Source: a virus. Taken from it: a DNA stretch of 51,124 bases. Numbering within the stretch: position 1 is the stretch's first letter; the number at the start of each line of letters is the position of its first letter. The stretch covers positions 1-51,124 of the IMG/VR virus record IMGVR_UViG_3300022745_000043; one strand, written 5' to 3'. A program made the translations under genes and the position numbers. Below are positions 847 through 45,530 of this stretch, piece after piece. The notes under the pieces are model-generated. The model saw only the letters and a program-made list of their open reading frames with translations. It had not been told where the DNA came from and did not search any database.

Positions 847-897
847 CAAGGCGAGGGAATCTCCGAGAACTTCCCACCAGATGTCAGAGGCCCGGCC

Positions 898-910
898 TAC
901 CGTCAGCGCA
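898..910 (+). promoter_or_regulatory. -10 element six bases before the DUF3263 ATG (leaderless start)
   Basis: TACCGT at 898-903 is followed by six bases and then ATG 910, so transcription would begin at or beside the start codon. The second DUF3263 copy has TACCTT at the same six-base distance (44197-44202, ATG 44209). Both also have TGTCAG ten bases upstream of the -10. Conservation of this spacing without a ribosome site supports a leaderless mRNA. Confidence 0.5.
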
Positions 911-1176: not shown

Positions 1177-1565
1177 AGCGGTCCCGTTCGGTACACGCCG
1201 AAGATGCCGTGGCCGGTCGATGCCGCCGCAACCCGGCCGATCTCGCTGGACAGCCGGTCGAACGCCGCCGCCTGATCGTTGCGTGACATCCGGCCATGCA
1301 TCAGACAGAAGGCCACGACCCCGCCGCGTTCTAGCGCGTCACTCTCAGGTTCGCGCGACCTGAGCTTCTTGTCCTTGGTCAGCACAGACCACCCGCTCAC
1401 CGCAGCCAACTCGATCCACTCGACGTCCAGGGCCTTCATCGCCCCGTCTCTGCCGTACACGTCCTCGAGGGTGTGCACGGTCCAGCCCATCGGCCGCAGA
1501 AGGGCCGCGACCGTGGGAGTCAAAGAGCGGTCGAGAAGGAACTCAGGCTGTGCGCGGGAGGACAC
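1158..1565 (-). CDS. vapC45: VapC45-type PIN-like toxin
   Basis: About 135 residues from GTG 1565, which lies 22 bases upstream of the end of the antitoxin gene, so translation is probably coupled. The N-terminal FLLDRSLTPTVAALLRPMG, the central DVEWIELAAVSGWSVLTKDK and the C-terminal YRTGPLQRVWP match the VapC45 PIN-like family, in which acidic residues bind metal for RNA cleavage. Partner VapB45 lies just upstream, the M. tuberculosis VapB45/VapC45 gene order. The 3' end overlaps the convergent DUF3263 gene by 19 bases. Family assignment is firm; ribonuclease activity is inferred. Confidence 0.8.
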   Translation of the reverse strand: MSSRAQPEFLLDRSLTPTVAALLRPMGWTVHTLEDVYGRDGAMKALDVEWIELAAVSGWSVLTKDKKLRSREPESDALERGGVVAFCLMHGRMSRNDQAAAFDRLSSEIGRVAAASTGHGIFGVYRTGPLQRVWP

Positions 1566-2235
1566 GCTGGTGCGCCCGGAGCGCAGCCTCGACGTCGGCC
1601 GGCTCGATCCGGAACTCCTCGGCAACCACGTTCACGGGCTCTCCGGCGTAGAACAAGTCCAGGACATCCTCGACGGCCGCCTTGGACCCGGCGAACACCG
1701 GCCGACCATAGTTGAACCGTGGGTCCAGAATGACCTCGGCCGAGTCGTAGCCCTTGAGTCGCAGCGTGTCAGCCAGGCCATCACTGCCGTAGCTGATGGC
1801 CTTGAGGTACGGGATCGCGAAGTCGGGCAGATACTGACGGTCTCGCGCCCGCTCCCATGCGCCACCCCGGCGCACCATCAGATCCAGCCCGCTGGCGGCG
1901 AGATCCTGTGACGCGAGGGCGTACTCGCCGCCGGCCTCCTGGCGCAGGGTGCCGACCGCTTCACGGATCTCCCGCAGCGGGATGCCGAAATCCCGGAAGG
2001 CGCGCAGTACGTGAGCCTCGACAACGCCAAGGAACGGCACCACCGGCTCGCCGTAACCGCGGGGAGCGTTGGCGTGCACCAGAGGTGCTCCGCCGGCGTT
2101 CTCGACCGTCCAACGCCTCACGGTGGTCCTGCGGCCACCCGTCGCGATCGCCGTGTGTGCCACCGTCAGCAACGGTGCCAGCTTCCGCCGGTCGATCATC
2201 CACCACACCCCCTCGGTCGCCTGGCTACTGACCAT
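1543..2235 (-). CDS. vapB45: VapB45-type DUF433 antitoxin
   Basis: 230 residues from ATG 2235, preceded by AGGTGG five bases upstream; the open frame further upstream is only antisense to the lipoprotein gene. Residues 50-100 contain VVPFLGVVEAHVLRAFRDFG, a MerR-like helical region. The C-terminal third has DUF433 features (VILDPRFNYGRPVFAGSK, then VVAEEFRIEPADVEAALR), an HTH used in autoregulation. Length and order match VapB45 of mycobacteria. It should bind and neutralise the VapC45 encoded 3' of it. The pair forms a cassette inserted into a DUF3263-lipoprotein locus that is uninterrupted at 44.2-44.9 kb. Confidence 0.8.
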   Translation of the reverse strand: MVSSQATEGVWWMIDRRKLAPLLTVAHTAIATGGRRTTVRRWTVENAGGAPLVHANAPRGYGEPVVPFLGVVEAHVLRAFRDFGIPLREIREAVGTLRQEAGGEYALASQDLAASGLDLMVRRGGAWERARDRQYLPDFAIPYLKAISYGSDGLADTLRLKGYDSAEVILDPRFNYGRPVFAGSKAAVEDVLDLFYAGEPVNVVAEEFRIEPADVEAALRAHQRVLPRTA

Positions 2236-2298
2236 GGTGCCACCTGGCACCCCCGTTGACCCGTTGCGGCCGCGTTCAACGCCTGACGGCGGCGGCTG

Positions 2299-2346
2299 CG
2301 GGAGCAGCGGCGCGCGGCGCGGTCGGGGCGCGTCAGGCCTGCGTGA
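2299..2346 (+). pseudogene. Remnant of the original DUF3263 3' end
   Basis: In frame to the TGA at 2344-2346 this stretch reads REQRRAARSGRVRPA, nearly the same as the intact DUF3263 end at 44415-44466 (REQRRATRSGRVRPA). It overlaps the lipoprotein stop exactly as in the intact copy. It marks the far edge of the inserted VapBC45 cassette. The sequence gggagca(caa)gcggcgcgcg occurs at both edges (about 1118-1140 and 2300-2316), a probable target duplication or recombination seam. Confidence 0.7.
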
Positions 2347-2734
2347 GGATGAGCTCGAGCCCCGAGTCGGGGTGGTAGCGCCAGACGGCCGAGTACGAGC
2401 CCCAGGAAGCCTCCTGCCGCCCGTCAAGAGCACGCGTCTGGTCGATGTCAGCCAACACGGAGTCCGGCGTGCTCAACGCGCGGAGCACGCAGGCGATCTG
2501 CTGGTAGCTCACCCCGTCGACGTCGTCGTTGCCTTTGCTGTCCAGGGTCACGGTCTTGCCGGAGTCCCCGACGGTGAGGCCGGGCTGGCTCCGGTTGAGA
2601 CAGTTCCAGGCCGCGGTTTCGAGGGCGGGCGTGGTGGGACTCGCCTCACTCGAAGAGTCTGTGGCCGGCCCGGCCTGACTCGCGCAACCGGCAAGCAGCC
2701 CCGAAGCCAAAACGACCAGCGCCCAGCGCTTCAC
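2333..2734 (-). CDS. Small lipoprotein, copy 1
   Basis: 133 residues from GTG 2734. It has a lipoprotein signal peptide (MKRWALVVLASGLLAGC, lipobox LAGC with acylated Cys near 17), a Ser/Thr-rich linker and a mature domain with two cysteines (WNCLNRSQPGL and QQIACVLRAL) and an acidic DSKGNDD stretch. It would be anchored outside the cytoplasmic membrane. It is about 97% identical to the lipoprotein at 44453-44854, which ends tail-to-tail with the other DUF3263 gene. Surface exposure of a phage-borne lipoprotein suggests lysogenic conversion or superinfection exclusion, but no domain of known function is visible. Confidence 0.8.
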   Translation of the reverse strand: MKRWALVVLASGLLAGCASQAGPATDSSSEASPTTPALETAAWNCLNRSQPGLTVGDSGKTVTLDSKGNDDVDGVSYQQIACVLRALSTPDSVLADIDQTRALDGRQEASWGSYSAVWRYHPDSGLELILTQA

Positions 2735-2790
2735 GACGAACCCCCGCTTCCCCCGGCCCCCGTGGCCGACGGTCGCAGCCTAGCGGCCGC

Positions 2791-3093
2791 TCAGACCGTG
2801 CGGCGGTAGACCGGGTACACGTGCCGGCCGACGGCGAGCACGCCGACCTGCGGCCAGTAGCGCGACACCCACATGTCCGGGGTGGCGTAGCAACGCTCGC
2901 CGCGCTTGGTCTTCGGCCGGTGCCAGTAGTGCGAGCGCCAGGTCGTCGTCACGCAGGGCTTGATCGAGGGCGCACCGGATGCCTGCGGGATGGCCGGGCC
3001 GGGGCCGTCGATGCTCCTCGACGCCTGAGCGGGGGCGATGACGGCGAGCGACGCGACCAGGGCCGCGAGAAGGACGAGGGCGATGCGCTTCAT
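2791..3093 (-). CDS. Small secreted protein
   Basis: 100 residues. The signal peptide MKRIALVLLAALVASLAVIA ends with a likely AQA-S cleavage near residue 24. The mature part is about 75 residues, basic and aromatic, with two cysteines (KPCVTTTWRSHYWHRP and GERCYATPDMWVSRYW) that could form a disulfide. I recognise no family. It lies 57 bases upstream of the lipoprotein gene on the same strand and next to the attachment site, a usual place for genes expressed in the lysogen. Confidence 0.65.
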   Translation of the reverse strand: MKRIALVLLAALVASLAVIAPAQASRSIDGPGPAIPQASGAPSIKPCVTTTWRSHYWHRPKTKRGERCYATPDMWVSRYWPQVGVLAVGRHVYPVYRRTV

Positions 3094-3115
3094 GGTGGCT
3101 CCGAGGCGTCGGGGC

Positions 3116-3330
3116 GTTGCCTAGGCAACACCCGGAGGCGGATTGGGCGTCGTCGGAGACACCCGGAGCAACCCCCGAAACGCCTCTGACCTGCGGCAAC
3201 GCCGAAACCTGAGCACGTCAGGACACGTCGTCAGCGGGTTCAAGTCCCGCCTTCCGCACCTGTATAGTGCCTGGTCAGAGGCCGTGTCGCAAGCACATCG
3301 GAGAGCCAGGCAACACCGCCAGGCAACACC
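3116..3330. repeat. Integrase arm-type repeats on both sides of the tRNA-derived core
   Basis: AGGCAACACC occurs left of the core at 3123 (AGGCAACACCCGGAGG, with inverted GTTGCCT at 3116-3122) and right of it at 3308-3317 and 3321-3330, the last followed by GGAGG. Short direct repeats flanking a core on both sides are typical of the P and P' arms bound by the N-terminal domain of a tyrosine integrase. A normal prophage end would carry only one arm, so this looks like an undivided attP. Confidence 0.6.
3208..3260 (+). other. attP-type core: 3' fragment of a leucine-type tRNA
   Basis: GCGGGTTCAAGTCCCGC (3234-3250) is a complete T arm with a TTCAAGT loop, followed by CTTCCGC (3251-3257), A and CC: the 3' acceptor strand and end of a tRNA. 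A matching 5' strand GCGGAAG is absent in the preceding 90 bases, so the tRNA is not complete. The acceptor sequence and the possible long variable arm upstream fit tRNA-Leu; a CTGAGCA loop-like stretch at 3209-3215 would be a GAG anticodon. It lies 100 bases upstream of the integrase, as an attachment core should. Confidence 0.65.
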
Positions 3331-3361
3331 GGAGGCCTCCCGGAGAACCCCGGAGGTAACC

Positions 3362-4522
3362 GTGGCGAGCATCCAGGCACGCCCCAGCGGCACCTACCGC
3401 GTCTCATTCCGCCTCGACGGCCGCCAGAAATCCGTGACCGTCGCGAGCATCAGCGACGCCCAAGCCGTCGTCCGACTCATCGACCGGTACGGCCCCGCCG
3501 ACGCCCTCGAGCTGCTCGCCGCACAGTCCACCGCGAGCGCCACCACCCCCACCGTCACCGAGGCCGCGCGCGCCCACGTTGCCCGCCTCACCGACGTGAC
3601 CGACGGAACCCGCCACGACTACGAGCGCATCATCGACCGCGCCCTGGACGGCCAACCCATCGGCGAACTGCCCGTGAACCTCGTCGGCCGCGAAGCCGTC
3701 GTGCGCTGGCACTCCTGGCTCCGCGCAGACCGCGGCCTGTCCAGCAAGACCATCCGCAACCACCACGCCCTGCTGTCCGCGACGTTCGCCACCGCCATCG
3801 CCGACGGCCACGCCACCACCAACCCGTGCCGCGGCGTGCGCGTCCCCCAGGTCGAGCGCGTGAGCGACAAGGTCTTCCTGTCCTCCGGCGAGCTCGCGAT
3901 CCTCACCGCCGCGATCCCCGTGCGCTACCAGCCGCTCATCATCACCCTCGCCGGCACCGGCCTGCGCTGGGGCGAAGCCACCGCGCTCGAGGTCGGCGAC
4001 GTCGACCTGGACGCCGCAGTCCCCCTGCTGCGCATCACGAAGGCGTGGAAGCGCACCGGCACCCAGGCCGCCGTCCTCGGCCCACCCAAGTCACGCGCCG
4101 GCGTGCGCACCGTGTCCCTGCCGCCCGAGGTCGTCGAGGCCCTCGCACCGCTGATGGACGGGCGCGCGACCAGCGACCTGCTGTTCACCGCGCCCGGCGG
4201 CGGACGCCTACGCCACGACCACTTCTTCGACCGCGTCTGGAAGCCCACCCTGGACAAGCTCAACTCCCGCCAGGACGAGCACGGCAACCCCATCACCCCA
4301 GCACTGGCCAAGCGACCCCGCCTGCACGACCTGCGCCACGGGCACGCCTCCGCGCTCATCGCCGCCGGCATCAACCTGCTCGAGGTCAAGGACCGGCTCG
4401 GGCACGAGTCCATCGACACCACCGTGGGCACCTACGGGCACCTCGTCCCGCAGGCCATGGCACGCACCGCCGCCGCCGCGTCCGCGTACCTCGTCCAGGC
4501 CGCCCCACAGATCGAGGCCTAG
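3362..4522 (+). CDS. int: Tyrosine site-specific integrase (tRNA-Leu-type site)
   Basis: 386 residues from GTG 3362, preceded by GGAGGT five bases upstream. An arm-binding domain (residues 1-55, SGTYRVSFRLDGRQKSVTVA) and a SAM-like core-binding domain (65-160) precede the catalytic domain. Visible catalytic residues are R202 (TGLRWGE), a lysine in the KSRAG turn, H322-x-x-R325-H326 (HDLRHGH), the later LGHESIDTT and nucleophile Y358 (TYGHL). It should insert and excise the phage at a tRNA gene matching the core just upstream. It converges with, and overlaps by four bases, the ImmA gene. Confidence 0.93.
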   Translation: MASIQARPSGTYRVSFRLDGRQKSVTVASISDAQAVVRLIDRYGPADALELLAAQSTASATTPTVTEAARAHVARLTDVTDGTRHDYERIIDRALDGQPIGELPVNLVGREAVVRWHSWLRADRGLSSKTIRNHHALLSATFATAIADGHATTNPCRGVRVPQVERVSDKVFLSSGELAILTAAIPVRYQPLIITLAGTGLRWGEATALEVGDVDLDAAVPLLRITKAWKRTGTQAAVLGPPKSRAGVRTVSLPPEVVEALAPLMDGRATSDLLFTAPGGGRLRHDHFFDRVWKPTLDKLNSRQDEHGNPITPALAKRPRLHDLRHGHASALIAAGINLLEVKDRLGHESIDTTVGTYGHLVPQAMARTAAAASAYLVQAAPQIEA

Positions 4523-4935
4523 GCCGCCAGCCGCGCCGCGATCGCGTCCTTCTCCTGGACCGTCAACGACCGGATCCGCCGGCGCACCACATCGACCGTG
4601 ACGTCGAGCTCGTGCGCGACCTCCTCCGGGCACAACGCCCACCGCAGCACATCCGCCAGGCGCTCGAGGTCGACCAGGCGCCGCGCCGCGAGGTCGTCCG
4701 CGTCACGCTCCATCCGACGGTCGAACCACTTCCGGCCCGTCTTCGCGTGGTCCAGGTCGACGTGCGCGATCTCGTGCGCGAGCACCGTGTTCCGCTCCGC
4801 CCGACCCAACGTCCGCTCGAGCAGGATCACCCGCTCGGCAGCGATCCAAGCGCCGCGCGCCGGGCGCAGGTCGACGCGTCCGATATGGATGTGCGGGTAC
4901 CGCTGTGCGGCGTCCTCCCAGGGCGAGTAGCCCAC
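4519..4935 (-). CDS. ImmA/IrrE-family metallopeptidase
   Basis: 138 residues. The zinc-binding motif HEIAH lies at residues 54-58 within NTVLAHEIAHVDLDH, and MERDADDLAARRL downstream supplies the third ligand region typical of ImmA/IrrE proteases. In ICEBs1 and many actinophages such proteins cleave the phage repressor after DNA damage. The gene follows the repressor on the same strand 18 bases downstream. It lacks a fused HTH, unlike IrrE of Deinococcus. Repressor cleavage here is inferred from position. Confidence 0.85.
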   Translation of the reverse strand: MGYSPWEDAAQRYPHIHIGRVDLRPARGAWIAAERVILLERTLGRAERNTVLAHEIAHVDLDHAKTGRKWFDRRMERDADDLAARRLVDLERLADVLRWALCPEEVAHELDVTVDVVRRRIRSLTVQEKDAIAARLAA

Positions 4936-4953
4936 TATGTCCCCCGTCGCTAG

Positions 4954-5289
4954 TCAGCCGCCGCGGATCTCCCGCGCCTTGCTCAGTGCTGCGAGGCGAG
5001 CAGCTGCTCGCACCTCTTCGCGCTCGACGTCGGACAAGCCCGAGAGAGCGTCGTCCGGGAGGTCGAGCATCACCCCGTCCGCATCGTTGTCGGCGGGTGC
5101 GACATCGCGCCCGTCAAGCGCCGCGACAAGGACGGCGGTCAGCGCGGCAATGGTGCGGGGGCGCACGGTGACGCCAGCCTCGGCCTTGCGGACGGTCTCT
5201 TCGCTCAGGCCGGCGCGGCGGCCTAGTTCGGCCTGCGACCAGTCGAGTGCCTTGCGCTGCTCGCGCAGCTCGTCGCCTGTTGTTGTCAC
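4954..5289 (-). CDS. XRE-family phage repressor
   Basis: About 111 residues from GTG 5289; an ATG at 5319 in frame is possible but would place the start inside the operator region. Residues 5-60 form an XRE helix-turn-helix (GDELREQRKALDWSQAELGR, then RRAGLSEETVRKAEAG). The C-terminal half is acidic (LPDDALSGLSDVEREEVR), a likely linker and dimerisation tail. It is transcribed away from the Cro-like gene, with four GGCAAA boxes between them. It is the probable immunity repressor of this unit and shares no operator sequence with the repressor at 48.2-48.7 kb. Confidence 0.8.
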   Translation of the reverse strand: MTTTGDELREQRKALDWSQAELGRRAGLSEETVRKAEAGVTVRPRTIAALTAVLVAALDGRDVAPADNDADGVMLDLPDDALSGLSDVEREEVRAAARLAALSKAREIRGG

Positions 5290-5314
5290 GTCCCGAGGAT
5301 GGCTCCAAACCTTC

Positions 5315-5466
5315 GGCAAAGTCCAATCAACCTAGGCAAATACGCGGCGTGTAGTTCGTTTCCGTTGGCACACATGGGCGATCTCTGTCGGGGGTATCGT
5401 CGCAGGCCAGGCAAACATTTGCCCGACTTCCAGCCTTGGAGACTGGACACACGGCAAACCTTTGCC
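5315..5466. promoter_or_regulatory. Operator set: GGCAAA-NN-TTTGCC palindromes
   Basis: Two perfect 14-bp palindromes, GGCAAACATTTGCC (5410-5423) and GGCAAACCTTTGCC (5453-5466), lie upstream of the Cro-like gene. Two half sites GGCAAA (5315-5320, 5335-5340) lie next to the repressor start. This two-sided arrangement around divergent promoters is the standard layout of a lysis-lysogeny switch. The region is clearly lower in GC than its neighbours. Confidence 0.8.
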
Positions 5467-5481
5467 CTACGTTGTCACCCA
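5444..5481 (+). promoter_or_regulatory. Early rightward promoter with operator in its spacer
   Basis: TGGACA (5444-5449), an 18-bp spacer containing the second palindrome, and TACGTT (5468-5473) form a sigma-70-type promoter ending seven bases before ATG 5481. With no ribosome site in front of that ATG, the transcript is likely leaderless. Repressor bound at 5453-5466 would block RNA polymerase directly. Confidence 0.6.
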
Positions 5482-5768
5482 TGAGCAGGAACTACGACAA
5501 CCAGCGGCCCAAGAGGCAGCCGCCCGTCGTCCCCCTCGCCGCCCTGCGCAAGTCGCACGGGCTCACCCAGCCCGACGTCCTGGCCCGCATCAAGGACGAG
5601 TCCGGCCGTACCTACACCGTCGGCGCGCTGTCCGCTCTCGAGGGCGGTCACCGGGGCGCCAGTGAGCACTTCCTCCAGGACATCGCCGCCGTCTTCGGCC
5701 TTGAGCCCGCAGACCTCTGGACCGACTACACCCCGCGCGCGCAGGCCGGCACCGAGGAGGCAGCGTGA
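5481..5768 (+). CDS. XRE-family Cro-like regulator
   Basis: 95 residues. After a basic N-terminus (RPKRQPP), residues 16-75 form an XRE domain: PLAALRKSHGLTQPDVLARI, then YTVGALSALEGGHRGAS, with helix DIAAVFGLEPADLW. It is the first rightward gene after the operators and so the likely Cro or early activator. It ends in an ATGA overlap with the next gene. The start has no Shine-Dalgarno and sits at the predicted transcription start. Confidence 0.78.
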   Translation: MSRNYDNQRPKRQPPVVPLAALRKSHGLTQPDVLARIKDESGRTYTVGALSALEGGHRGASEHFLQDIAAVFGLEPADLWTDYTPRAQAGTEEAA

Positions 5769-6139
5769 TGGATACGGCTGTCTACCGGCTCTTCGACGAG
5801 AACGGCGCACTCCTCTACGTCGGCATGAGTTCTGACGCCGAGGCGCGCATCCGCGCGCACCGCAGCACCTCGGTGTTCGGGTGGCGCATCCGTTCCACGA
5901 CGGTCAGCGACTTCCCCACCCGCGCGGCGGCCGCCGCTGCAGAGCGGGAGGCGATCCGCGACGAGGCTCCGCTGTTCAACGTCGTCGGCCGCTTCGGCGA
6001 CCGCTCCGCATGGACGTTGGAGCACTACCGGGCCTTCCTTCAGGTGGCCTCACCGCGCAGGTCGTCCAACGTTGTGCGCCGTCGCATCGAGCTGATCGAG
6101 GCCGAGGCCCGCACCCGCTTCGGCGCGGAGGTGGCGTGA
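5768..6139 (+). CDS. GIY-YIG-like nuclease domain protein
   Basis: 123 residues starting in an ATGA overlap. The N-terminus VYRLFDENGALLYVGMS fits the first beta strands of a GIY-YIG domain (VYRL for GIY, LYVG for YIG). It is followed by RIRAHRSTSVFGWRIRSTTV and a helix rich in Ala and Glu (AAAAAEREAI) holding the expected glutamate. The C-terminal 40 residues are basic. It could be a small endonuclease or a DNA-binding protein. Its place between the regulator and the excisionase-like gene suggests an early DNA function. Confidence 0.65.
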   Translation: MDTAVYRLFDENGALLYVGMSSDAEARIRAHRSTSVFGWRIRSTTVSDFPTRAAAAAAEREAIRDEAPLFNVVGRFGDRSAWTLEHYRAFLQVASPRRSSNVVRRRIELIEAEARTRFGAEVA

Positions 6140-6369
6140 TGGACGAGCGCACCGAGCTCTTCGACGCGACCGAGGCCGCCCGCCGCCTGGGCATGACGGA
6201 GGAGTTCGTCAAGATCCGCGCTCGTCGCGGCGAGATCCCGTCCCGCCTCATCGGCCGGTACCGGCGCTTCACCCAGGCCGACCTCGACGAGTACGTCGAC
6301 GCCTGCAAGGTCGGCGGCGACTCCGGTCCGCGCATCACGCGCGTCACCCGCGGCAGGCGATCCGCGTGA
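6139..6369 (+). CDS. xis: Excisionase-like helix-turn-helix protein
   Basis: 76 residues. LFDATEAARRLGMTEEFVKI, then RARRGEIPSRLIGRYRRFTQ and a DLDEYV helix form a compact MerR/Xis-type winged HTH, the excisionase fold common in actinophages. It starts in a TGATG overlap with the GIY-YIG-like gene. The tail (RITRVTRGRRSA) is basic. It is the best candidate recombination directionality factor for the integrase at 3362-4522; a purely regulatory role is the alternative. Confidence 0.75.
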   Translation: MDERTELFDATEAARRLGMTEEFVKIRARRGEIPSRLIGRYRRFTQADLDEYVDACKVGGDSGPRITRVTRGRRSA

Positions 6370-6380
6370 CCCCCGAAGCC

Positions 6381-6459
6381 CCGGTCAGAACTCCCCCGGC
6401 CTGACCGGCCAGGTGCGGGCGCCTCGTGCGCATCCCCCCGTTAGCGGGGCGCCCGCACC
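6381..6459 (+). ncRNA. Tandem C-rich-loop hairpins, 6C-RNA-like
   Basis: Hairpin 1 pairs CCGGTCAG (6381-6388) with CTGACCGG (6401-6408) around the loop AACTCCCCCGGC. Hairpin 2 pairs GGTGCGGGCGCC (6412-6423) with its complement (6448-6459) around a loop containing CATCCCCCCG. Two adjacent stem-loops with runs of C in the loops are the hallmark of actinobacterial 6C small RNA. The second phage carries the same pair at 49405-49488 with compensatory stem changes. There is no U-tract after it. Assignment as RNA is supported by covariation; its role is unknown. Confidence 0.6.
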
Positions 6460-6471
6460 ACCTACGTCCAG

Positions 6472-6538
6472 ACAAGCCAATGGACCGGCTCCCCGCGAAG
6501 AGATCACCGGCCCATCGACAACGAAGGGAGTGTCCCAC
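6472..6538 (+). promoter_or_regulatory. Conserved 53-bp leader upstream of the small-gene operon
   Basis: The 53 bases from ACAAGCCAATGGACCGGCTC onward (6472-6524) are identical to 49501-49553 in the second phage, although the following genes differ. The block contains an ATG (6480) opening a frame MDRLPAKRSPAHRQR that in the second phage stops directly before the next start codon. It also contains CCGG repeats able to pair. It may be a promoter, a leader peptide or an RNA element; identity exceeds that of nearby coding DNA. Confidence 0.55.
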
Positions 6539-6823
6539 ATGGACACCGCCGAGAACGACCGCATCGCCTGGGAGGCGGGCGCCTGGTGCGACCTGCTGAT
6601 GTCCGAGCTTGCCGCGAAGTCGGCGCGTCACACCGTCACCGCCCGCGCTCGCTTGTTCCTCGACGCGGGGCTCCCGCTCGCGAGGGTCCTCGACGCGCTC
6701 AAGATCGCCGAGGACGAGTGGGACGCGCGCATCGCCGACCACGACGCCACCAAGGCCGCGAACCGTGCGTTCCACGCCGAGCGAGAGGCCGCTGCCACGG
6801 CCGTCCCCGAGTTGATCGCATGA
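6539..6823 (+). CDS. Hypothetical helical early protein
   Basis: 94 residues from ATG 6539 with AGGGAG upstream. It is predicted mostly alpha-helical (WEAGAWCDLLMSELAAKSAR, RLFLDAGLPLARVLDALKIA, then a charged Ala-rich helix). I recognise no family. The second phage lacks this gene at the matching place: the conserved leader is followed directly by the counterpart of the next gene, so this one is an insertion or a loss. It overlaps its downstream neighbour by ATGA. Confidence 0.75.
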   Translation: MDTAENDRIAWEAGAWCDLLMSELAAKSARHTVTARARLFLDAGLPLARVLDALKIAEDEWDARIADHDATKAANRAFHAEREAAATAVPELIA

Positions 6824-7152
6824 CCGCCGGCGCCATCACGATGCTGCTGCTGGCCGTGGTGCTCGCGCTCGCCGCGATCCACGTCCGGTCCATGCGCCGG
6901 ATCGACGCCGGCCGCGCCGCGGCCCTCAACTCCGCCCTGGCGATCGTGGAGGACTCGCATCGCCGCCTCTTCTTCGCCCGCGACTTGCGCGACCAGGCCG
7001 TCGTGGAGAACGTCGACCTCTTGCACCAGCTGCAGGAGGCCCGCGCCCGCATCACCGCGCTCGAGGCCGAGCCCACCGCCGCCGAAGTCGCCGTCGTCGA
7101 GCAGCTCGCCGCCACCGCGTTCCGGGGCCCGTTCGGGGGGCAGCAGCTGTGA
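6820..7152 (+). CDS. Small membrane protein with coiled coil
   Basis: 110 residues. One N-terminal transmembrane helix (MLLLAVVLALAAIHV, about 8-22) is followed by a long charged coiled coil (DLLHQLQEARARITALEAE) and the tail FRGPFGGQQL. It is homologous to the protein at 49566-49910, which differs mainly at the N-terminus. It is coupled by ATGA upstream and GTGA downstream. Function unknown; a membrane-attached helical rod resembles spanin-like or exclusion proteins, but the early position argues against lysis. Confidence 0.75.
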   Translation: MTAGAITMLLLAVVLALAAIHVRSMRRIDAGRAAALNSALAIVEDSHRRLFFARDLRDQAVVENVDLLHQLQEARARITALEAEPTAAEVAVVEQLAATAFRGPFGGQQL

Positions 7153-7301
7153 CCGCCACCGTCGCCCTGGTCCGCCCGATCTGGCTGAGGTTCACCGCCT
7201 CCGCGACACCGACCGACGTCGCCGACGTCATCGCCCTCGCCGCCGGCCAGCCCGTCGCGCTCGTCGTCGACGTCATGCCCGCGATGGAGGTGGCGTCGTG
7301 A
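7149..7301 (+). CDS. Conserved 50-residue early protein
   Basis: 50 residues from GTG 7149 (GTGA overlap) to TGA 7301. The sequence is VALVRPIWLRFTASATPTDV, then a short helix and VALVVDVMPAMEVAS. It is virtually identical to the product of 49907-50059 in the second phage, including the coupling at both ends, which supports a real gene despite its size. No family is recognised. Confidence 0.7.
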   Translation: MTATVALVRPIWLRFTASATPTDVADVIALAAGQPVALVVDVMPAMEVAS

Positions 7302-7597
7302 ACGGCTTCCTCGCCCTCGTCGGCTTCGTGACGCTGCTGTTCCTCGCCGTGCTGGGACTCGCCGCGCTCGCGCTGTGGCTACTGCGCGACAACGACCCCG
7401 GCGTCATCGACATCACCGACCGCATCGAGAGCTCTCGCGGCCACGTGAAGGTGGTCGAGCGGCCCGCGCCGGCCGACCCCGACACGGACGCGGGCCACTC
7501 CACCGTCGGCCACGTCCTCGGTGGCGCCCTGGTCCTGGCCGTCGTCGTGGCCCTGCTCGCGCTGTGCGGCGCGGTCGAGACGGGGTGGACGTCGTGA
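7298..7597 (+). CDS. Two-helix membrane protein
   Basis: 99 residues. Transmembrane segments lie at about 3-27 (FLALVGFVTLLFLAVLGLAA) and 74-92 (LVLAVVVALLALCGAV), joined by an acidic soluble loop (DNDPGVIDITDRIESSRGH). Both ends are translationally coupled. The protein at 50056-50355 in the second phage is about 95% identical. Early phage membrane proteins often act in superinfection exclusion or altered host envelope state; that is inference only. Confidence 0.75.
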   Translation: MNGFLALVGFVTLLFLAVLGLAALALWLLRDNDPGVIDITDRIESSRGHVKVVERPAPADPDTDAGHSTVGHVLGGALVLAVVVALLALCGAVETGWTS

Positions 7598-7932
7598 CCA
7601 CCCACCGCATCGACATCGACACCGCCTACGTCGACCACGTCCTGAGCGGCATCAAGCCCTTCGAGGTTCGCCGCAATGACCGCGCCTACGTGGCGGGCGA
7701 CTACCTCCTGATGCGCGAGGTCGGTGACACGGGTATCGAGGACGGCCACTGGGGCGAGCCAGACCAGGCCGACGGCCACTCGTGCTCTCGGTGTCGCACT
7801 CGCCGTTACGTGCGGGCGCGGATCACCTACGTCTACTCGGGCGACCCGCGCTGGACCGACCTGACCCCCGGCGTCGTCGTTCTCGGCCTCGGTGGCGTCG
7901 GGATCCCGCTCCCCGTCGGCGGTGCGTCGTGA
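7594..7932 (+). CDS. DUF3850/ASCH-like RNA-binding-fold protein
   Basis: 112 residues from GTG 7594. HRIDIDTAYVDHVLSGIKPF, then EVRRNDRAYVAGDYLLMRE and the late RARITYVYSGDPRW with VVVLGLG match DUF3850, an ASCH/PUA-like beta barrel common in phages. The usual order of a lysine-containing helix, a charged EVR(K/R)NDR turn and a closing strand is present. An extra Cys pair (CSRCRTRR) interrupts the barrel. The matching place in the second phage holds an unrelated 77-residue gene. ASCH domains bind RNA or modified bases; the target here is unknown. Confidence 0.75.
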   Translation: MTTHRIDIDTAYVDHVLSGIKPFEVRRNDRAYVAGDYLLMREVGDTGIEDGHWGEPDQADGHSCSRCRTRRYVRARITYVYSGDPRWTDLTPGVVVLGLGGVGIPLPVGGAS

Positions 7933-8201
7933 GCCTCGACGAGGCCGCGTTCGCTGAGGCCGTGCAGACGGCGGCTGAGGCGTGGGCTGACCGGGGACTC
8001 GGCGCCGGCGTCCGCGTCGGGCGGGCTGCCGCAACCGCCGCCGTCGCCGCCGCGTGGCCGGTCATCGAGCGGGCCGTCCTCGCGGAGGCCGCCGCGAAGC
8101 TGCGAGAGCTGGCCAACGCGCAGCGTCTGAACTCCGTCACCGGCGTCGCCCGTCTCACAGCGTTCGACTCTGCCGCCCGCATCATCGAGGCCACCCCGTG
8201 A
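7929..8201 (+). CDS. Hypothetical Ala-rich helical protein
   Basis: 90 residues, GTGA-coupled. It is nearly all helix, with the core WPVIERAVLAEAAAKLRELA and end ARIIEATP. The core and end are shared with the protein at 14999-15238 (WPVIERAVLAEAAAEVRALY, DIIEAAS), so the phage carries two copies of this family. The DNA match is strongest over the WPVIERAVLAEAA codons. Function unknown. Confidence 0.7.
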   Translation: MSLDEAAFAEAVQTAAEAWADRGLGAGVRVGRAAATAAVAAAWPVIERAVLAEAAAKLRELANAQRLNSVTGVARLTAFDSAARIIEATP

Positions 8202-8434
8202 CCGCCTTCGCCGCCACCTGGGCGGCCCTATGGGCGGGTGCGGCGTTCCTGTCGGGGACGGCGCTGGGCTACCGGCTCCGTCGTCCCGCCGTCGTCGAGA
8301 CGTGCGGGGACGTGACCACCGTGCACGGACTCGGCCGCGACCTCGTCGCGGAGTGCCAGCGGTCGGCGGGCCACGACGGTCGCCACGTCGGCATGGACGG
8401 CGAGGCCACGGTCGAGTGGCCGGTGACGGCATGA
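8198..8434 (+). CDS. Small membrane protein with Cys pair
   Basis: 78 residues from GTG 8198. One N-terminal transmembrane helix (FAATWAALWAGAAFLSGTAL) is followed by a short domain with two cysteines and histidines (ETCGDVTTVH, ECQRSAGHDGRHVG). The relative at 50582-50836 shares the helix almost exactly and the CxxxAGHxGxHVG motif but differs between them. Coupled at both ends. The Cys/His pattern suggests metal binding or a disulfide outside the membrane; function unknown. Confidence 0.72.
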   Translation: MTAFAATWAALWAGAAFLSGTALGYRLRRPAVVETCGDVTTVHGLGRDLVAECQRSAGHDGRHVGMDGEATVEWPVTA

Positions 8435-8535
8435 ACCGCCCCGTGCCCGTCGTCGGCACCGCCCTCGGCATCGGCCGTGCCGGGGAACGCCTCGCCGGCC
8501 GACTCGGGCGACCGTGCGGGAGATGGTGGCTGTGA
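8431..8535 (+). CDS. Possible 34-residue microprotein
   Basis: ATG 8431 overlaps the previous stop (ATGA), and the frame ends at TGA 8533-8535, overlapping the next GTG. The peptide is basic and Gly-rich (GTALGIGRAGERLAGRLGRP). Support comes only from overlap at both ends; there is no counterpart in the second phage. Confidence 0.4.
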   Translation: MNRPVPVVGTALGIGRAGERLAGRLGRPCGRWWL

Positions 8536-8942
8536 GCAGCCTCCGCCGCGCCCTGCGCACCGTGTGGGACTTCCTCGGCGAGGACTTCACCGAGGTCTGT
8601 CCCTGCCCTGACTGCGAGCGCACCGCTGCGCGCCTCGAGCAGGCCACGCACCAGCCGCATCCCGCTGTCCTGCACGCCGAGCGACGTGCGGCCACCGACC
8701 ACGCCGGGGAGGTGCGCCCCCAGCCGTCGACCTTCCCGGCTGGCGCGAGCGACATGCCCACCTCCCCGGCGTGCCTGCCCTGCGCGGCCAAGGACCGGCG
8801 CATCGCCGACCTCGAGGCCGACCTTCTCGTCGTCCGCGCGCACCGCCACCGCATCGAGGACGACCGCCTTCACCTGATCCACGCGAGCGCCGCCGCTGAT
8901 CCCGGCCCCGCTCCCACGACTGAGGAGACCGCGCATGTCTAG
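8532..8942 (+). CDS. Cys-containing coiled-coil protein
   Basis: 136 residues from GTG 8532. It has an early CPCPDC cluster, a Pro-rich middle and a second pair CLPC followed by a charged helix (KDRRIADLEADLLVVRAHRH). Two CxxC-type pairs suggest a zinc-binding coiled-coil protein. The ATG at 8523 is an alternative start. The gene overlaps parB by eight bases. No family recognised. Confidence 0.65.
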   Translation: MSSLRRALRTVWDFLGEDFTEVCPCPDCERTAARLEQATHQPHPAVLHAERRAATDHAGEVRPQPSTFPAGASDMPTSPACLPCAAKDRRIADLEADLLVVRAHRHRIEDDRLHLIHASAAADPGPAPTTEETAHV

Positions 8943-9648
8943 CGCCCGCGCTGCCGGGGGCCTGGCCCGGATCCCGCTCGAGGAGATCAACCCGAACCCC
9001 GCGAACCCGCGCCGCGATGTCGGTGACGTCTCCGAGCTTGCGGACTCGATCCGGGAGCGCGGCCTGATCCAGCCCCTGGTCGTGCACCCACGCGCCCGTG
9101 GTGGCTACGAGCTGCTGTCCGGGCACCGCCGGTACGCGGCTCTCGTGCACCTGGACGCGGCCACCGCGCTGTGTCTGATCGCGCCGGCGCGGAAGGACGT
9201 CGAGGCGCTGCAGATCATGCTGGTGGAGAACGGCCAGCGTGAAGCCCTGTCCCCGATGGAGGAGGCGCGCGCGTTCGACCGCCTCCTGAAGATGGGCCTG
9301 AGCCAGGCCCAGATCGCCAGGGGGGTGGGCCGCTCTCAGACCCACGTGTCGCACCGCCTCGGCCTCATGCACCTCACGCCCCGGCAGCAGGCCGAGGTAG
9401 ACGCCGGTGAGCTCCGTGTCGTGGACGCCGTGCACGCGTCCCGAGCCGCGCGCGGCCGCGCCGATGACACGCACTTCACCGGATGGCACCTGGGCAAGCA
9501 CCACCCCCTGGCGGAGGACGTGCGTGACGCCTGCGCGACGGCCGGGCATCCGCGGGTCCGCCGCGTCGGCGGCGTCGGGTGTGGTGCCTGCTGGGAGGTC
9601 GCGATCCGCGCCGACGAGCGGCGCCACGCGCGCGGTGGTGCCGCATGA
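8935..9648 (+). CDS. ParB/Spo0J-like nuclease/CTPase-fold protein
   Basis: 237 residues. The ParB/Srx N-domain is clear: IPLEEINPNPANPRRDVGDV, then SIRERGLIQPLVVHPRARGG and the GHRRYAALVHLD motif. A helical region with an HTH follows (LSPMEEARAFDRLL, LSQAQIARGVGRSQTHVSHR). The C-terminal 60 residues hold two cysteines. No ParA gene is next to it, so plasmid-type partition is unlikely; solitary ParB-like proteins in actinophages are thought to act as regulators or nucleases. The gene cut at the right edge (50833-51124) is its close relative. Confidence 0.88.
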   Translation: MSSARAAGGLARIPLEEINPNPANPRRDVGDVSELADSIRERGLIQPLVVHPRARGGYELLSGHRRYAALVHLDAATALCLIAPARKDVEALQIMLVENGQREALSPMEEARAFDRLLKMGLSQAQIARGVGRSQTHVSHRLGLMHLTPRQQAEVDAGELRVVDAVHASRAARGRADDTHFTGWHLGKHHPLAEDVRDACATAGHPRVRRVGGVGCGACWEVAIRADERRHARGGAA

Positions 9649-18528: not shown

Positions 18529-19959
18529 GTGGTCACACGCCCCGACGCCCTCGCTCGAGCCGAGCAGCTGCTGACGCGGCTGCTGCGCCGGCGCAAGGAG
18601 ATCACCGAGCGGGACGAGTACTACGGCGGCTGCCAGCCGCTGCGGTTCGCCACCCGCGAGTGGGCCGACGAGCACGCCAAACGGTACGAGGGGTTCTCGG
18701 ACAACTGGTGCGGTGTTGTTGCGGACTCCACGGTGGAGCGGATCCACGTCAGCGGGTTCCGGCTGGACCAGGACGGTGCGCAGAGCGACGCCGAACGTGA
18801 GCTGTGGCGCTCGGTGTGGCTGGACAACGACATGGACGCCCAGGCCACCCAGGGTGTCCTGGAGACCGTGATCGCTGGCCGTTCCGCGGTCCTGGTGTGG
18901 GGTGACCCGGACACCGAGGCGCCGGTGGTCACGTGGGAGCACCCGAGCCACGTGTTCGTCGACTACGACGCGGAGAACCCGCGCCGGCGCGCGGCGGCGA
19001 TCAAGTGGTGGCTCGACGACGACCACGAGTACCTGAACCTGTACCTGCCGGACGAGGTGTGGAAGTTCCAGCGCAACCGGGCCAGCACTTCGGGTCTGAT
19101 CCTGCCCGAGTCGATGGGCGGGGATTGGCTCGACCGCGCTGGTGAGGCAGCTCAGCCGCTGGAAAACCCGCTCGGCGTCGTGCCGATCGTGGAGTTCATG
19201 AACCGGCCCCGCCTGGCGCAGGACCCGTTGAGCGACATCGCGGGCACGATGGCGATGCAGGACGCGATCAACCTGCTGTGGGCGTACCTGTTCAACGCGG
19301 CGGACTACGCGTCGATGCCCGCCCGGGTGATCATGGGGCAGTCCCCGCCCAAGGTGCCGATCCTGGACGACGCTGGCCAGAAGATCGGCGAGCGGGAGAT
19401 CGAGCCCAGGGAGCTGGCGAACGGTCGCCTGCTGTGGCTGACGGGGCAGCACGCGAACATCGGCACGTTCCCCGCCGCCGAGCTCAGCGGGTTCTCCGAG
19501 GTCGTCGAGGTCGCTGTGGGCCATGTGGCGGCGCAGACCCGCACGCCGCAGCACTACCTGATCGGGAAGATGGCGAACCTGTCCGGTGATGCGCTCAAGG
19601 CGGCCGAGACCGGGCAAGCGCTCAAGTCCGCGGAGTTCAACATCAGCAACACCTTCCCGGTCCGCGAGGTGTTCCGTCTCGGGGCTCTCGTGCAGGGACG
19701 TCAGGATCTGGCGGTTGCGGCTGCGCGTGGCACCGTGAAGTGGAAGGACACCGAGTCCCGGTCCGAGTCGCAGCTCGTGGACGCGTTGCAGAAGTTGAAG
19801 GACACCGGGTTCCCGTTCGAGTTCCTCGCCGAGCGCTATGGCTTGGACGACACTGAGCTCGACCGGGTCATGGCCATGCGCGAGCAGGAGCGGTCCGATC
19901 CCACTCTGATGGCGATCGCCGGCAAGCTCGGTGGCACCGGTGCTTCAGTCGGCGGCTGA
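18529..19959 (+). CDS. Portal protein
   Basis: 476 residues from GTG 18529 (GAGGAGG upstream). N-terminal ERDEYYGGCQPLRFATREW, then NWCGVVADSTVERIHVSGF are typical of SPP1 gp6-like portals. LNLLWAYLFNAADYASMPAR and the later region TRTPQHYLIGKMANLSGDAL support this. The 12-subunit portal forms the DNA entry vertex and motor dock. Its 3' end overlaps the MuF-type gene by 29 bases. Confidence 0.93.
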   Translation: MVTRPDALARAEQLLTRLLRRRKEITERDEYYGGCQPLRFATREWADEHAKRYEGFSDNWCGVVADSTVERIHVSGFRLDQDGAQSDAERELWRSVWLDNDMDAQATQGVLETVIAGRSAVLVWGDPDTEAPVVTWEHPSHVFVDYDAENPRRRAAAIKWWLDDDHEYLNLYLPDEVWKFQRNRASTSGLILPESMGGDWLDRAGEAAQPLENPLGVVPIVEFMNRPRLAQDPLSDIAGTMAMQDAINLLWAYLFNAADYASMPARVIMGQSPPKVPILDDAGQKIGEREIEPRELANGRLLWLTGQHANIGTFPAAELSGFSEVVEVAVGHVAAQTRTPQHYLIGKMANLSGDALKAAETGQALKSAEFNISNTFPVREVFRLGALVQGRQDLAVAAARGTVKWKDTESRSESQLVDALQKLKDTGFPFEFLAERYGLDDTELDRVMAMREQERSDPTLMAIAGKLGGTGASVGG

Positions 19960-21739
19960 TCACTACCGCCAGCAGCAGACTCTCACCGCGGTCACGATCG
20001 CGGCGGCGGTACGCCTGTGGTCTCGGCTGGGGCCTGGTGATTTCGACGAGGCATGGCGGGTTCTTGGCCCGCAGCTGCAGGCGCTGCTGATGGCTGCGCA
20101 GATCCGGGCGGCTGATGACGCCGCCAGGTACGTGGCGGCCGCGGCCCTCGAGCAGGGGCTGGACCCGCTAGCCGTCGGCGAGCTGGTGCCGGCGGCCTTC
20201 GGATCGGGATACGCGTCGGATGGGCGACCGTTGGCGACGCTGCTGTACCAGCCGCTGGTCGCCACGCGCACAAGCCTCGGTCAGGGCAGCAGCCTCGCGG
20301 ACGCGCTCAGCGTCGGGCAGCAGGCGTTGAGCCTGATCGTTGGAACGCAGACCGCGGACGCGGGTCGCGCCGCCGAGTCGGTGGCCATCGCCTCGACGCC
20401 GTCGGTGGGCGGGTGGGTCCGCATGCTGAACCCGCCGTCGTGCTCGAGGTGCGTGATCCTGGCCGGGAAGTGGTTCCGTTGGAACCAGGGCTTCGCTCGC
20501 CATCCTCGGTGCGACTGCCGGCACATCCCGGCCAGCGAGAACCACGCCGGTGACCTGACCACCGACCCCTACGAGTACTTCCAGGGCCTGTCCCGGCCGC
20601 GACAGGACGCGGCGTTCGGGGCCGCGAACGCTCAGGCCATCCGTGACGGCGCGGACATCTACCAGGTCGTGAATGCCTCACGCACCAGCGCCGGCCTCAC
20701 CACCCTGGAAGGGGTGCGGTCGCGGCGCGGCTATGCCGCCCGTGAGCTCCTGGGGCCGATCCCGCGAGCCGCGGTGCCGCGGGTCACCCGGTTGACGCCG
20801 CAGGGAATCTACGACCAGGCGAGCAGCCGTGAGGAAGCCCTCGCGCTGCTGCGCCGCAACGGCTACATCACCGGCAAAGGTCAGCTGCCCGGCGGCGCGA
20901 TTCAGGGGCCGATCCGTCCGGGTCGGGAGGGCTTCGGCCAGATGGGTCGCGGCGGGACCCGCGTGGCCGCACGCGATTCCGTCGAGCGGGCCCGCCGCAC
21001 CGGGGTCCGCGACCCGAACAACCGAGCCACCATGACCGCCGCCGAACGCCGCGCGTTCGACGACACCACCGGTCGTGCGCGGATGACCACGGCACAGCGC
21101 GCCGAGTTCGACCGAGCCGTGCGCGCTGGCGTCGACCCGGGCCTGGCCTCGCGACGGGTCCTCGGGGAGCAGACTGCGCACGAGGCAGCGCAGTCCGCCG
21201 TCGCGCAGGCGCGCAAGGTGGAGCCGAGCCTGACCCGCTCGATCAACCGCCTGGCCGAGCGCCACGGTGCACGGGTGGAAGGTCTGGACTTCCGGATCAA
21301 GGGTGTCGACAGCCTCGCCCGCAAGATCCAGGACGACATGGATCGGTTCCGCGTCACCGCGGGCCAGGCGGCAGCAGACGTGTCGGACATCAACCGGTAC
21401 ACGCTCGTGCTGCCGGCGTCGCGCTACTCCGCCGGCGCGCAGGCCGCGATCGACGACCTGCGGGCCTCTGGTGCGACTGTCCGCGTCAAGAACTACTGGG
21501 CCGTCCCGTCCAACCCGTACCAGGGCGTCAACTGCGTCGTGACCTTGCGCGATGGCACGAGGTACGAGCTGCAGTTCCACACGCCCGATTCGCTGCGCAT
21601 CAAGGAACACGAACTGCACGGCCTCTACGAGCAGCGTCGAGCGTCACGGGATGCAGCGCTGCGGGCCCGGCTCAACCAGGAGATGTTCCAGGTGGCAGCC
21701 GGGATCCCGGTGCCGGCGTCAGTTGACCGAATTCACTGA
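19931..21739 (+). CDS. MuF-type minor head protein with C-terminal RelA/SpoT-like toxin domain
   Basis: 602 residues from GTG 19931. Residues 1-230 are a portal-associated MuF domain: PSCSRCVILAGKW near 168-180 and RHPRCDCRHIP near 190-200 give the CxxC...HPxCxC signature. Residues 230-430 are a linker. Residues about 440-580 match the RelA/SpoT nucleotidyltransferase fold: R455-I-K457-x3-S461-x3-K465 (RIKGVDSLARKI), D486-I-N-R-Y (DINRYTLVL), NYWAVPSNPYQGVNCVVTL and E546-x-Q548 (YELQFHT), then EHELHGLYEQ. These correspond to substrate and catalytic residues of ppGpp synthetases and toxSAS enzymes. MuF proteins with C-terminal toxin domains are known in temperate phages. A convergent small gene at its 3' end is the candidate immunity gene. 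Confidence 0.85.
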   Translation: MAPVLQSAADHYRQQQTLTAVTIAAAVRLWSRLGPGDFDEAWRVLGPQLQALLMAAQIRAADDAARYVAAAALEQGLDPLAVGELVPAAFGSGYASDGRPLATLLYQPLVATRTSLGQGSSLADALSVGQQALSLIVGTQTADAGRAAESVAIASTPSVGGWVRMLNPPSCSRCVILAGKWFRWNQGFARHPRCDCRHIPASENHAGDLTTDPYEYFQGLSRPRQDAAFGAANAQAIRDGADIYQVVNASRTSAGLTTLEGVRSRRGYAARELLGPIPRAAVPRVTRLTPQGIYDQASSREEALALLRRNGYITGKGQLPGGAIQGPIRPGREGFGQMGRGGTRVAARDSVERARRTGVRDPNNRATMTAAERRAFDDTTGRARMTTAQRAEFDRAVRAGVDPGLASRRVLGEQTAHEAAQSAVAQARKVEPSLTRSINRLAERHGARVEGLDFRIKGVDSLARKIQDDMDRFRVTAGQAAADVSDINRYTLVLPASRYSAGAQAAIDDLRASGATVRVKNYWAVPSNPYQGVNCVVTLRDGTRYELQFHTPDSLRIKEHELHGLYEQRRASRDAALRARLNQEMFQVAAGIPVPASVDRIH

Positions 21740-21937
21740 CGCTGCGAACACGTCAGGGAACGCGGCACGCGCCCGTGGCTCGTCGATCTCGTCGACATCG
21801 TCGTTCCTGCCGAACTCCCACTCGACGATCTCGAGCGTCGGCTCCCAGACGCCGTCCCAGAAGCGCTCGTCGACGAAGTCGACACGGCGCAGCAGGACCT
21901 GGCGCCCGAACTTCGAGACCACGAACCACCGCGTCAC
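21719..21937 (-). CDS. Candidate immunity protein for the MuF-Rel toxin (antisense gene)
   Basis: 72 residues from GTG 21937, with a strong AAGGAGG site (21951-21945) eight bases upstream. It is the only leftward gene inside the 23-kb rightward late operon. The protein is acidic and aromatic: TRWFVVSKFGRQVLLRRVDF, VWEPTLEIVEWEFGRNDDVD, EIDEPRARAAFP. I recognise no family. It ends 21 bases inside the 3' end of the toxin gene, tail to tail. Being on the other strand lets it be made in a lysogen while late genes are silent, which is what an immunity gene needs. Function is inferred from position and expression logic. Confidence 0.7.
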   Translation of the reverse strand: MTRWFVVSKFGRQVLLRRVDFVDERFWDGVWEPTLEIVEWEFGRNDDVDEIDEPRARAAFPDVFAASVNSVN

Positions 21938-21965
21938 AGCGCTCACCTCCTTGGGCCGTGTCTCC

Positions 21966-21971
21966 ACGGTA
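21966..21971 (-). promoter_or_regulatory. -10 box for the antisense immunity gene
   Basis: TACCGT on the minus strand (21971-21966) fits the TAnnnT -10 consensus and lies 28 bases upstream of GTG 21937, leaving a short leader containing the AAGGAGG site. The -35 region is GC-rich and weak. Confidence 0.45.
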
Positions 21972-22036
21972 GCAGCGCCGCCCACAGTCCCCCGGTCGCC
22001 GCAAGGGCGCCGGCCGCACCCGCAACGGGAGCCAGC

Positions 22037-22789
22037 ATGACCAAGAACCACGCCCGCCTCACCCACCCGCACACGGGTGCGCGGATCGTCCCGCTCGGGT
22101 TCCGCCGCAACGGCGCGCCCATCTGGCCGATCCTCGGTGCCTCCGAGGACGACGGGGACGGCGACGGTGACGGTGACGACCCCGACGCTGGCGACGATGC
22201 CGCCGGCGCTGGCGAGGGCGACGGCGACAGGGACGGGGAGGCAGCCCCCGAGGCGCTCGGAGACGCCGGCAAGCAGGCCCTGGACCGGATGAAGTCCGAA
22301 CGCAACGAGGCTCGGCGCGAGAACCGGCGGCTCAAGGCCGAACTCGAAGCCGCCACCACACCCAAGGCGCCTGACGGCGACGCGCCCGATCCCGAGGCCC
22401 TCAAGGCTGAAGGGCGTCGCGAGGCGATCGCCGAGGCGAACCAGCGCGTCATCCGGTCCGAGGTCAAGGCAGCGGCGGTCACCGCCCAGTTCAACGACCC
22501 GGCCGACGCGCTCCAGTACATCGACCTCACCCAGTTCGAGGTCGACGACGACGGAAACGTCGACCCGGAGGAGATCGCGGACGCGATCAGTGACCTCCTG
22601 AGCAAGAAGCCCTACCTGGCCGCGCAAGGCGGGAAGAGGTTCCAGGGCAGCGCCGACGGGGGCACCCGCAACGGGACCAAGCCGCCGACGCTCGACGAGC
22701 AGATCGCAGCCGCGACAGCCGAGGGCCGTGTCCGCGACGTGATCTCTCTGCAGAACCAGCGCCTGTCAGAGGTCGCTGGCAAGTCCTGA
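22037..22789 (+). CDS. Capsid scaffold protein
   Basis: 250 residues. After an N-terminal GFRRNGAPIWPILGASE segment common in actinophage scaffolds comes a strongly acidic stretch, then a coiled coil (MKSERNEARRENRRLKAELE) and a helical C-terminal part ending QNQRLSEVAGKS, expected to bind the capsid. Position directly before the major capsid gene supports the call. No protease motif is visible. Confidence 0.82.
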   Translation: MTKNHARLTHPHTGARIVPLGFRRNGAPIWPILGASEDDGDGDGDGDDPDAGDDAAGAGEGDGDRDGEAAPEALGDAGKQALDRMKSERNEARRENRRLKAELEAATTPKAPDGDAPDPEALKAEGRREAIAEANQRVIRSEVKAAAVTAQFNDPADALQYIDLTQFEVDDDGNVDPEEIADAISDLLSKKPYLAAQGGKRFQGSADGGTRNGTKPPTLDEQIAAATAEGRVRDVISLQNQRLSEVAGKS

Positions 22790-44154: not shown

Positions 44155-44208
44155 TCGCCCGTCCCTCACGACAGGGTCTGTGTCAGACGCTCGCCCTACC
44201 TTCACCGT

Positions 44209-45528: not shown

Positions 45529-45530
45529 CG

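What the first reader, a model, noticed from the sequence alone, without database searches (positions are those of the whole stretch)
19931..21971. Virion MuF protein ending in a RelA/SpoT-like toxin, with a convergent antisense immunity gene
Seen: a MuF head protein whose last 150 residues carry the ordered RelA/SpoT signature (RIKGVDSLARKI, DINRYT, ELQFHT), and on the opposite strand a 72-residue gene with an AAGGAGG site and a TACCGT -10, the only leftward gene inside the late operon. Known: MuF proteins of temperate phages can carry C-terminal toxin domains, and Rel-like toxins (toxSAS) make alarmones or pyrophosphorylate tRNA. Inference: the toxin is packaged with the head and may be delivered to the cell, while the lysogen is protected by an antitoxin expressed independently of late genes. 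I recognise no family for the antitoxin.
Basis: partly seen in the sequence, partly recalled or inferred. Interest (0 to 1): 0.88.

Follow-up and report, generated by a model that had tools for sequence, protein, structure and literature searches.

The report
Phage head toxin with reversed immunity gene
A temperate phage carries, on the end of a head protein, an enzyme that should poison bacteria by turning ATP into an alarmone; the matching protective gene belongs to a known family but runs in the opposite direction, a layout shared by several related phages that may let a lysogen make the protector while its virus genes are silent.

Summary
The MuF gene (19931-21739 +) ends in a RelA/SpoT-type synthetase domain, and a 72-codon gene lies tail-to-tail on the other strand (21719-21937 -). 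The pair belongs to a described family: Apk2, a MuF polymorphic toxin with an adenosine 3'-pyrophosphokinase domain, and its small immunity protein IapK. The toxin domain carries the Apk signature (RYT, GxN, FHT), folds with high confidence and best matches the alarmone synthetase SaEAS (8vx3). The new part is the layout. Of 65 Apk2 loci with an identifiable immunity gene, 56 have it co-directional; nine have it convergent, all in one clade. In the other eight a ribbon-helix-helix gene lies directly upstream of iapK; the window has none. Nearly identical convergent cassettes sit on unrelated MuF N-termini. Related phages whose MuF lacks the domain have no gene at this place. The window has no recognisable Aph1 hydrolase. 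Best reading: a new Apk2/IapK member whose immunity gene is uncoupled from the late operon. Toxicity, delivery and independent expression are untested.

The parts
19931..21739 (+). MuF head protein with C-terminal toxin domain (apk2-like gene), 602 aa
   Evidence: PHROG 1522 head maturation/MuF-like 2.2e-87 over residues 2-413, PHROG 7625 head morphogenesis 4.7e-25 over 423-601
19931..21169 (+). MuF N-terminal part (head protein proper), related at 39-49% identity to MuF proteins of Arthrobacter and Brevibacterium phages
21218..21739 (+). Toxin domain: SYNTH fold alarmone synthetase (Apk2tox-like) with RIKGVDSLARKI, DINRYT, YQGVN, ELQFHT
   Evidence: profile to 8vx3 3.6e-31 / 1.4e-34; AF2 pLDDT 93.6; Foldseek TM 0.85-0.88 to 8vx3
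21719..21937 (-). iapK-like immunity gene, 72 aa, GTG start, convergent with and overlapping the toxin 3' end by 21 nt
21938..22036 (-). 99-nt intergenic region that must hold the leftward promoter and ribosome site (AAGGAGG) of iapK if it has its own; no consensus promoter found
18529..19959 (+). Portal protein gene (upstream context)
   Evidence: PHROG 104 1e-100
22037..22789 (+). Scaffold protein gene (downstream context)
   Evidence: Pfam Phage_scaffold 9.9e-9

Best explanation
This is an Apk2/IapK toxin-immunity cassette of a temperate phage of actinobacterial type. The MuF head protein carries a C-terminal SYNTH domain predicted to move pyrophosphate from ATP to the 3'-OH of ATP/ADP, and perhaps GTP/GDP, making toxic (p)ppApp (and perhaps (p)ppGpp) and draining ATP. 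The antisense 72-aa protein is an IapK homolog predicted to neutralise the domain by binding over its active site. Because it is read from the other strand, outside the late transcript, it can be made when late genes are off; the likely use is to protect lysogens from the toxin that arrives with, or is made by, phages carrying the same cassette. Shown here: homology, fold, active-site signature, conserved convergent layout, cassette mobility. Inferred: enzymatic product, neutralisation, expression in lysogens, packaging and delivery.
For: Toxin: whole-domain homologs in known Apk2 phages; profile match to SaEAS 1.4e-34 and Tas1 2e-6; confident model superposing on 8vx3 at TM 0.85-0.88; invariant SYNTH residues; RYT/GxN/[YF]HT Apk signature (PMC12226406). 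Immunity: profile from 3 convergent ORFs gives 29 hits, all beside Apk toxins; profile from 37 co-directional ones gives the window ORF as the only hit of 845; confident fold. Layout: 9 convergent of 65 loci, one clade needing one change on the tree; RHH gene directly upstream of iapK in the eight other convergent loci. Module nature: MuF relatives without the domain have no gene there; L055 and L018 carry near-identical cassettes on unrelated MuF N-termini.
Against: No experiment. Match to the characterised Streptococcus/Pasteurellaceae IapK proteins alone is weak (hhalign probability 80%), so the family link runs through intermediates. No promoter recognised for iapK. No expression or virion data. 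SaEAS with the same signature also makes (p)ppGpp, so the product is not settled.
Confidence: 0.75

Rival explanations
1. An ordinary Apk2/IapK pair in which the reversed gene direction is a neutral accident of one ancestral inversion; immunity is still made only around late expression and has no special role in lysogens.
For: A single origin of the convergent layout on the tree; no promoter found; the window lacks the RHH gene.
Against: The layout is kept over toxin divergence of about 46% identity and across different MuF heads; in the other eight convergent loci iapK is coupled to an RHH gene, which suggests control of its own.
Confidence: 0.3
2. The domain is a tRNA-pyrophosphorylating toxSAS (like FaRel2, PhRel, CapRel) rather than an alarmone synthetase.
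For: Same SYNTH fold class; CapRel and FaRel2 appear among structural matches.
Against: Their TM scores are 0.38-0.49 against 0.85-0.88 for SaEAS; RYT/GxN/FHT signature of (p)ppApp makers; the immunity family is one reported to act at the acceptor site, which goes with (pp)pApp makers.
Confidence: 0.07
3. The C-terminal domain is a dead toxin relic kept as part of the head protein, and the small gene is a passenger.
For: No experiment; Pfam RelA_SpoT score is below its cut-off; no Aph1 hydrolase in the window.
Against: All motif residues that are invariant in the family are kept; the immunity homolog is retained beside it; MuF relatives do without the domain.
Confidence: 0.06

Closest known systems
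Apk2 MuF toxins with IapK and Aph1 (S. pneumoniae, M. haemolytica, P. multocida, B. caccae prophages; PMC12226406 and works cited there)
   Same: MuF N-terminus, C-terminal SYNTH domain with RYT/GxN/[YF]HT, small IapK-type immunity gene beside the toxin gene, head-module position
   Different: Immunity gene on the opposite strand, convergent; no recognisable Aph1; FHT instead of YHT; phage of actinobacterial type
SaEAS, exported alarmone synthetase of Streptomyces albidoflavus (8vx3, PMC12691689)
   Same: Closest solved structure; same fold and RYT/GxN/FHT motifs
   Different: Secreted by a signal peptide, no immunity gene, not on a phage head protein
Tas1/Tis1 (Apk1, type VI effector, 6ox6)
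   Same: SYNTH toxin making (p)ppApp, neutralised by a small protein at the acceptor site
   Different: PAAR-type delivery; weak sequence similarity (2e-6); the 72-aa model had no PDB match at all, so no structural match to the 6ox6 immunity chain was found
MuF polymorphic toxins (Jamet 2017, PMC5576092)
   Same: Head-module MuF protein with C-terminal toxin, RelA-like ones among them, and a small neighbouring ORF as proposed immunity
   Different: There the small ORF follows the toxin gene; a convergent layout was not found in the passages read

Membership tests
Apk2 (MuF-adenosine 3'-pyrophosphokinase) | N-terminal MuF head-protein domain | tested here: met
   PHROG 1522 at 2.2e-87; 39-49% identity to annotated MuF-like/capsid maturation proteins of Arthrobacter and Brevibacterium phages
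Apk2 (MuF-adenosine 3'-pyrophosphokinase) | C-terminal SYNTH domain with conserved active site | tested here: met
Apk2 (MuF-adenosine 3'-pyrophosphokinase) | Apk-specific syn2-4 signature (RYT, GxN, YH) | tested here: met
   RYT and GVN exact; FH in place of YH, as in SaEAS
Apk2 (MuF-adenosine 3'-pyrophosphokinase) | Gene within the phage head module | tested here: met
   Between portal and scaffold/major capsid
Apk2 (MuF-adenosine 3'-pyrophosphokinase) | (p)ppApp synthesis and toxicity | not testable with these tools
   Needs enzymology and growth assays
IapK immunity protein | Sequence homology to IapK-type genes beside Apk2 toxins | tested here: met
   E 1.2e-5 as sole hit of 845 window ORFs with a profile of co-directional members; weak against the characterised members alone
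IapK immunity protein | Gene directly beside the toxin gene | tested here: met
   21-nt overlap
IapK immunity protein | Co-directional with, and following, the toxin gene, as in described systems | tested here: not met
   Convergent here and in 8 other contigs, co-directional in 56
IapK immunity protein | Binds and neutralises the toxin | not testable with these tools
   Complex prediction and assays not available
Apk2-IapK-Aph1 three-gene locus | Aph1-type HD hydrolase gene | tested here: not met
   None in the window by an Aph1 profile or HD_4
Type II toxin-antitoxin operon | Toxin and antitoxin in one operon with DNA-binding autoregulation | tested here: not met
   Genes are convergent; an RHH gene is coupled to iapK in relatives but none was found in the window

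The most novel reading that the evidence does not exclude
In one actinophage-type clade the toxin-immunity cassette has been rebuilt so that immunity is made from its own leftward, often RHH-linked unit in the lysogen, while the toxin is made only late and packaged. Virions would then deliver a toxin that spares lysogens carrying the same cassette and harms other cells, making head-packaged MuF toxins a kin-discrimination or superinfection weapon.
Probability: 0.3. Interest if true: 0.75.

Novelty: new variant of a known kind. Interest (0 to 1): 0.5.

Why it matters
The papers that characterised Apk2 state that the physiological role of MuF toxins is unknown. A layout that separates immunity from the late operon is a natural experiment: if iapK is on in the lysogen and the toxin sits in the virion, the system protects lysogens, and this can be measured by strand-specific RNA-seq, virion proteomics and a superinfection assay. 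It also extends Apk2/IapK to phages of actinobacterial type: none of the 42 GenBank phage records matched by the toxin domain infects an actinobacterium.

Tried and rejected
Pfam alone misses the antitoxin and sees the toxin only below cut-off. tblastn of the 72-aa protein in GenBank phages found nothing. Foldseek of the 72-aa model gave no credible PDB match. The sigma-70 promoter scan gave nothing. dN/dS for L055/L018 was uninformative (about 0.74) while L013/L020 was clear. The tRNA-modifying reading was considered and set low. Two-chain structure prediction of toxin with immunity protein was not available. A first attempt to hand in this report was malformed.

Full report
What is there. 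The MuF-type gene at 19931-21739 (+) encodes 602 residues. Residues 2-413 match PHROG 1522 (head maturation/MuF-like) at 2.2e-87 and residues 423-601 match the C-terminus of PHROG 7625, a head-morphogenesis family, at 4.7e-25. Portal lies before, scaffold and major capsid after. On the other strand a GTG-started 72-codon ORF runs from 21937 to 21719, with AAGGAGG 8 nt before the start and third-position GC of 0.88, and overlaps the last 21 nt of the toxin gene tail-to-tail.

What the C-terminal domain is. Pfam sees RelA_SpoT only weakly (E 0.01), but relatives are plain: MuF/minor head proteins of Streptococcus, Pasteurella, Mannheimia and Aggregatibacter/Haemophilus phages at 30-35% identity over the whole domain, and 379 relatives among viral contigs. 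A 12-sequence profile hits the solved alarmone synthetase SaEAS (8vx3) at 3.6e-31; a 44-sequence profile hits it at 1.4e-34 and Tas1 at 2e-6. AlphaFold2 gives mean pLDDT 93.6 and the model superposes on 8vx3 with TM 0.85-0.88 for its best three chains; CapRel and FaRel2, which modify tRNA, score 0.38-0.49. The elements RxKxxxSxxxK, DxxRYT, YxGxN and ExQ[FY]HT are kept across the family. RYT, GxN and YH are the published syn2-4 signature of adenosine 3'-pyrophosphokinases (PMC12226406). The window has RYT, GVN and FH; SaEAS, which makes both pppApp and pppGpp (PMC12691689), has RYT, GLN and FH. The likely product is (p)ppApp, possibly with (p)ppGpp. This is the Apk2 family.

What the antisense gene is. 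In the annotated Apk2 phages the toxin gene is followed on the same strand by a gene of about 70 codons and, in all but Aaphi23, by an HD hydrolase gene; the literature names them IapK and Aph1 and reports that IapK occludes the acceptor site. A profile made from three convergent ORFs (window, L055, L018) gave 29 hits at E<0.01, all beside an Apk toxin, co-directional ones included; about 4% of the 16,967 ORFs lie at such a place. With a profile trained on 37 co-directional sequences only, the window ORF is the single hit among 845 window ORFs (E 1.2e-5), and the other convergent ORFs score 1e-11 to 1e-7. The caveat is that those 37 were recruited by iteration from the convergent seeds, though their position is independent evidence. 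Against the Streptococcus/Pasteurellaceae/L001-L002 proteins alone the match is weak (hhalign probability 80%). The 72-aa protein is predicted to fold well (pLDDT 92.9), has no credible match in the PDB, and is acidic (pI 4.4) against a basic toxin domain (pI 9.5).

The layout. Of 65 Apk2 loci with a detected immunity gene, 56 have it co-directional and 9 convergent. The convergent ones fall into four sub-lineages (window; L055/L017/L018; L014/L015; L012/L013/L020). Their toxin domains form one clade together with the truncated contigs L016 and L019, whose immunity genes could not be scored (support 94/77), and the tree needs one change of orientation. In the other convergent loci examined (L055, L018, L014, L013, L020, L012, and L017 by its near-identity to L018) a ribbon-helix-helix gene ends at the start of iapK (Pfam RHH_1 at 8.5e-5, 0.0036 and 4.2e-5 for three representatives), so there iapK is the distal gene of a leftward unit. 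The window has no RHH_1 match and only 99 nt between iapK and the scaffold gene, with no consensus promoter. L055 and L018 share a closely similar cassette on unrelated MuF N-termini (PHROG 4611 against PHROG 1522), so the convergent cassette moves as a unit. The convergent frame is under purifying selection in L013/L020 (dN/dS about 0.06).

Controls. MuF relatives of the window that end without the domain (Arthrobacter, Brevibacterium, and a more distant Rhodococcus phage) go straight from MuF to scaffold. A Gordonia phage with another C-terminal extension has a co-directional 86-codon gene at the same place. A scan for relatives of the 72-aa protein gave only loci with the toxin beside it, and GenBank phages hold none.

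Mechanism and limits. Best reading: late in infection the MuF-toxin is made and presumably enters the head; IapK, read from the other strand, can be made separately and neutralises the toxin. The phage is temperate by its integrases. That IapK is on in the lysogen, that the toxin is packaged and delivered, and what it makes are inferences. Without a recognisable Aph1 the cell would depend on IapK alone.

Verdict. A new variant of a known kind: an Apk2/IapK pair with convergent, mobile immunity in a clade of actinophage-type viruses. It is interesting because it makes the open question of what MuF toxins are for directly testable.

Noticed in passing
window 882-9226 and 44181-51124: Imperfect long-range direct repeats (87-97%) with changing spacing, and two different tyrosine integrases (3143-4522 + and 45531-46859 -): looks like two related prophage early regions, so tandem prophages or a chimeric contig.
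   Followed up: partly
L003:4813-7365: One MuF protein carries at least three tandem Apk-like synthetase domains and runs off the contig end.
   Followed up: no
L013:5191-8016 and L020:5191-8016: The synthetase domain is internal and followed by about 500 residues with a HELGHS metallopeptidase-like motif; possibly a second warhead. L016 and L012 begin the same way.
   Followed up: no
L044:6565-7248, L045:2305-2988, L048:6565-7248, L071:733-1392: The IapK-like domain forms the N-terminus of a longer ORF that looks like the next head/protease protein, i.e. immunity fused to a structural gene.
   Followed up: no
L102:2004-4006 (Gordonia phage Nyceirae gp8-gp9): MuF protein with a different C-terminal extension followed by an 86-codon co-directional gene: probably another toxin-immunity pair.
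   Followed up: no
window 4519-4935 (-) and 47833-48288 (-): Two metalloprotease genes near the integrases, the first of ImmA/IrrE type, as in lysogeny modules.
   Followed up: no
window 21719-21937 (-): The predicted IapK fold (four strands, helix, strand, helices; pLDDT 92.9) has no credible match among solved structures.
   Followed up: partly
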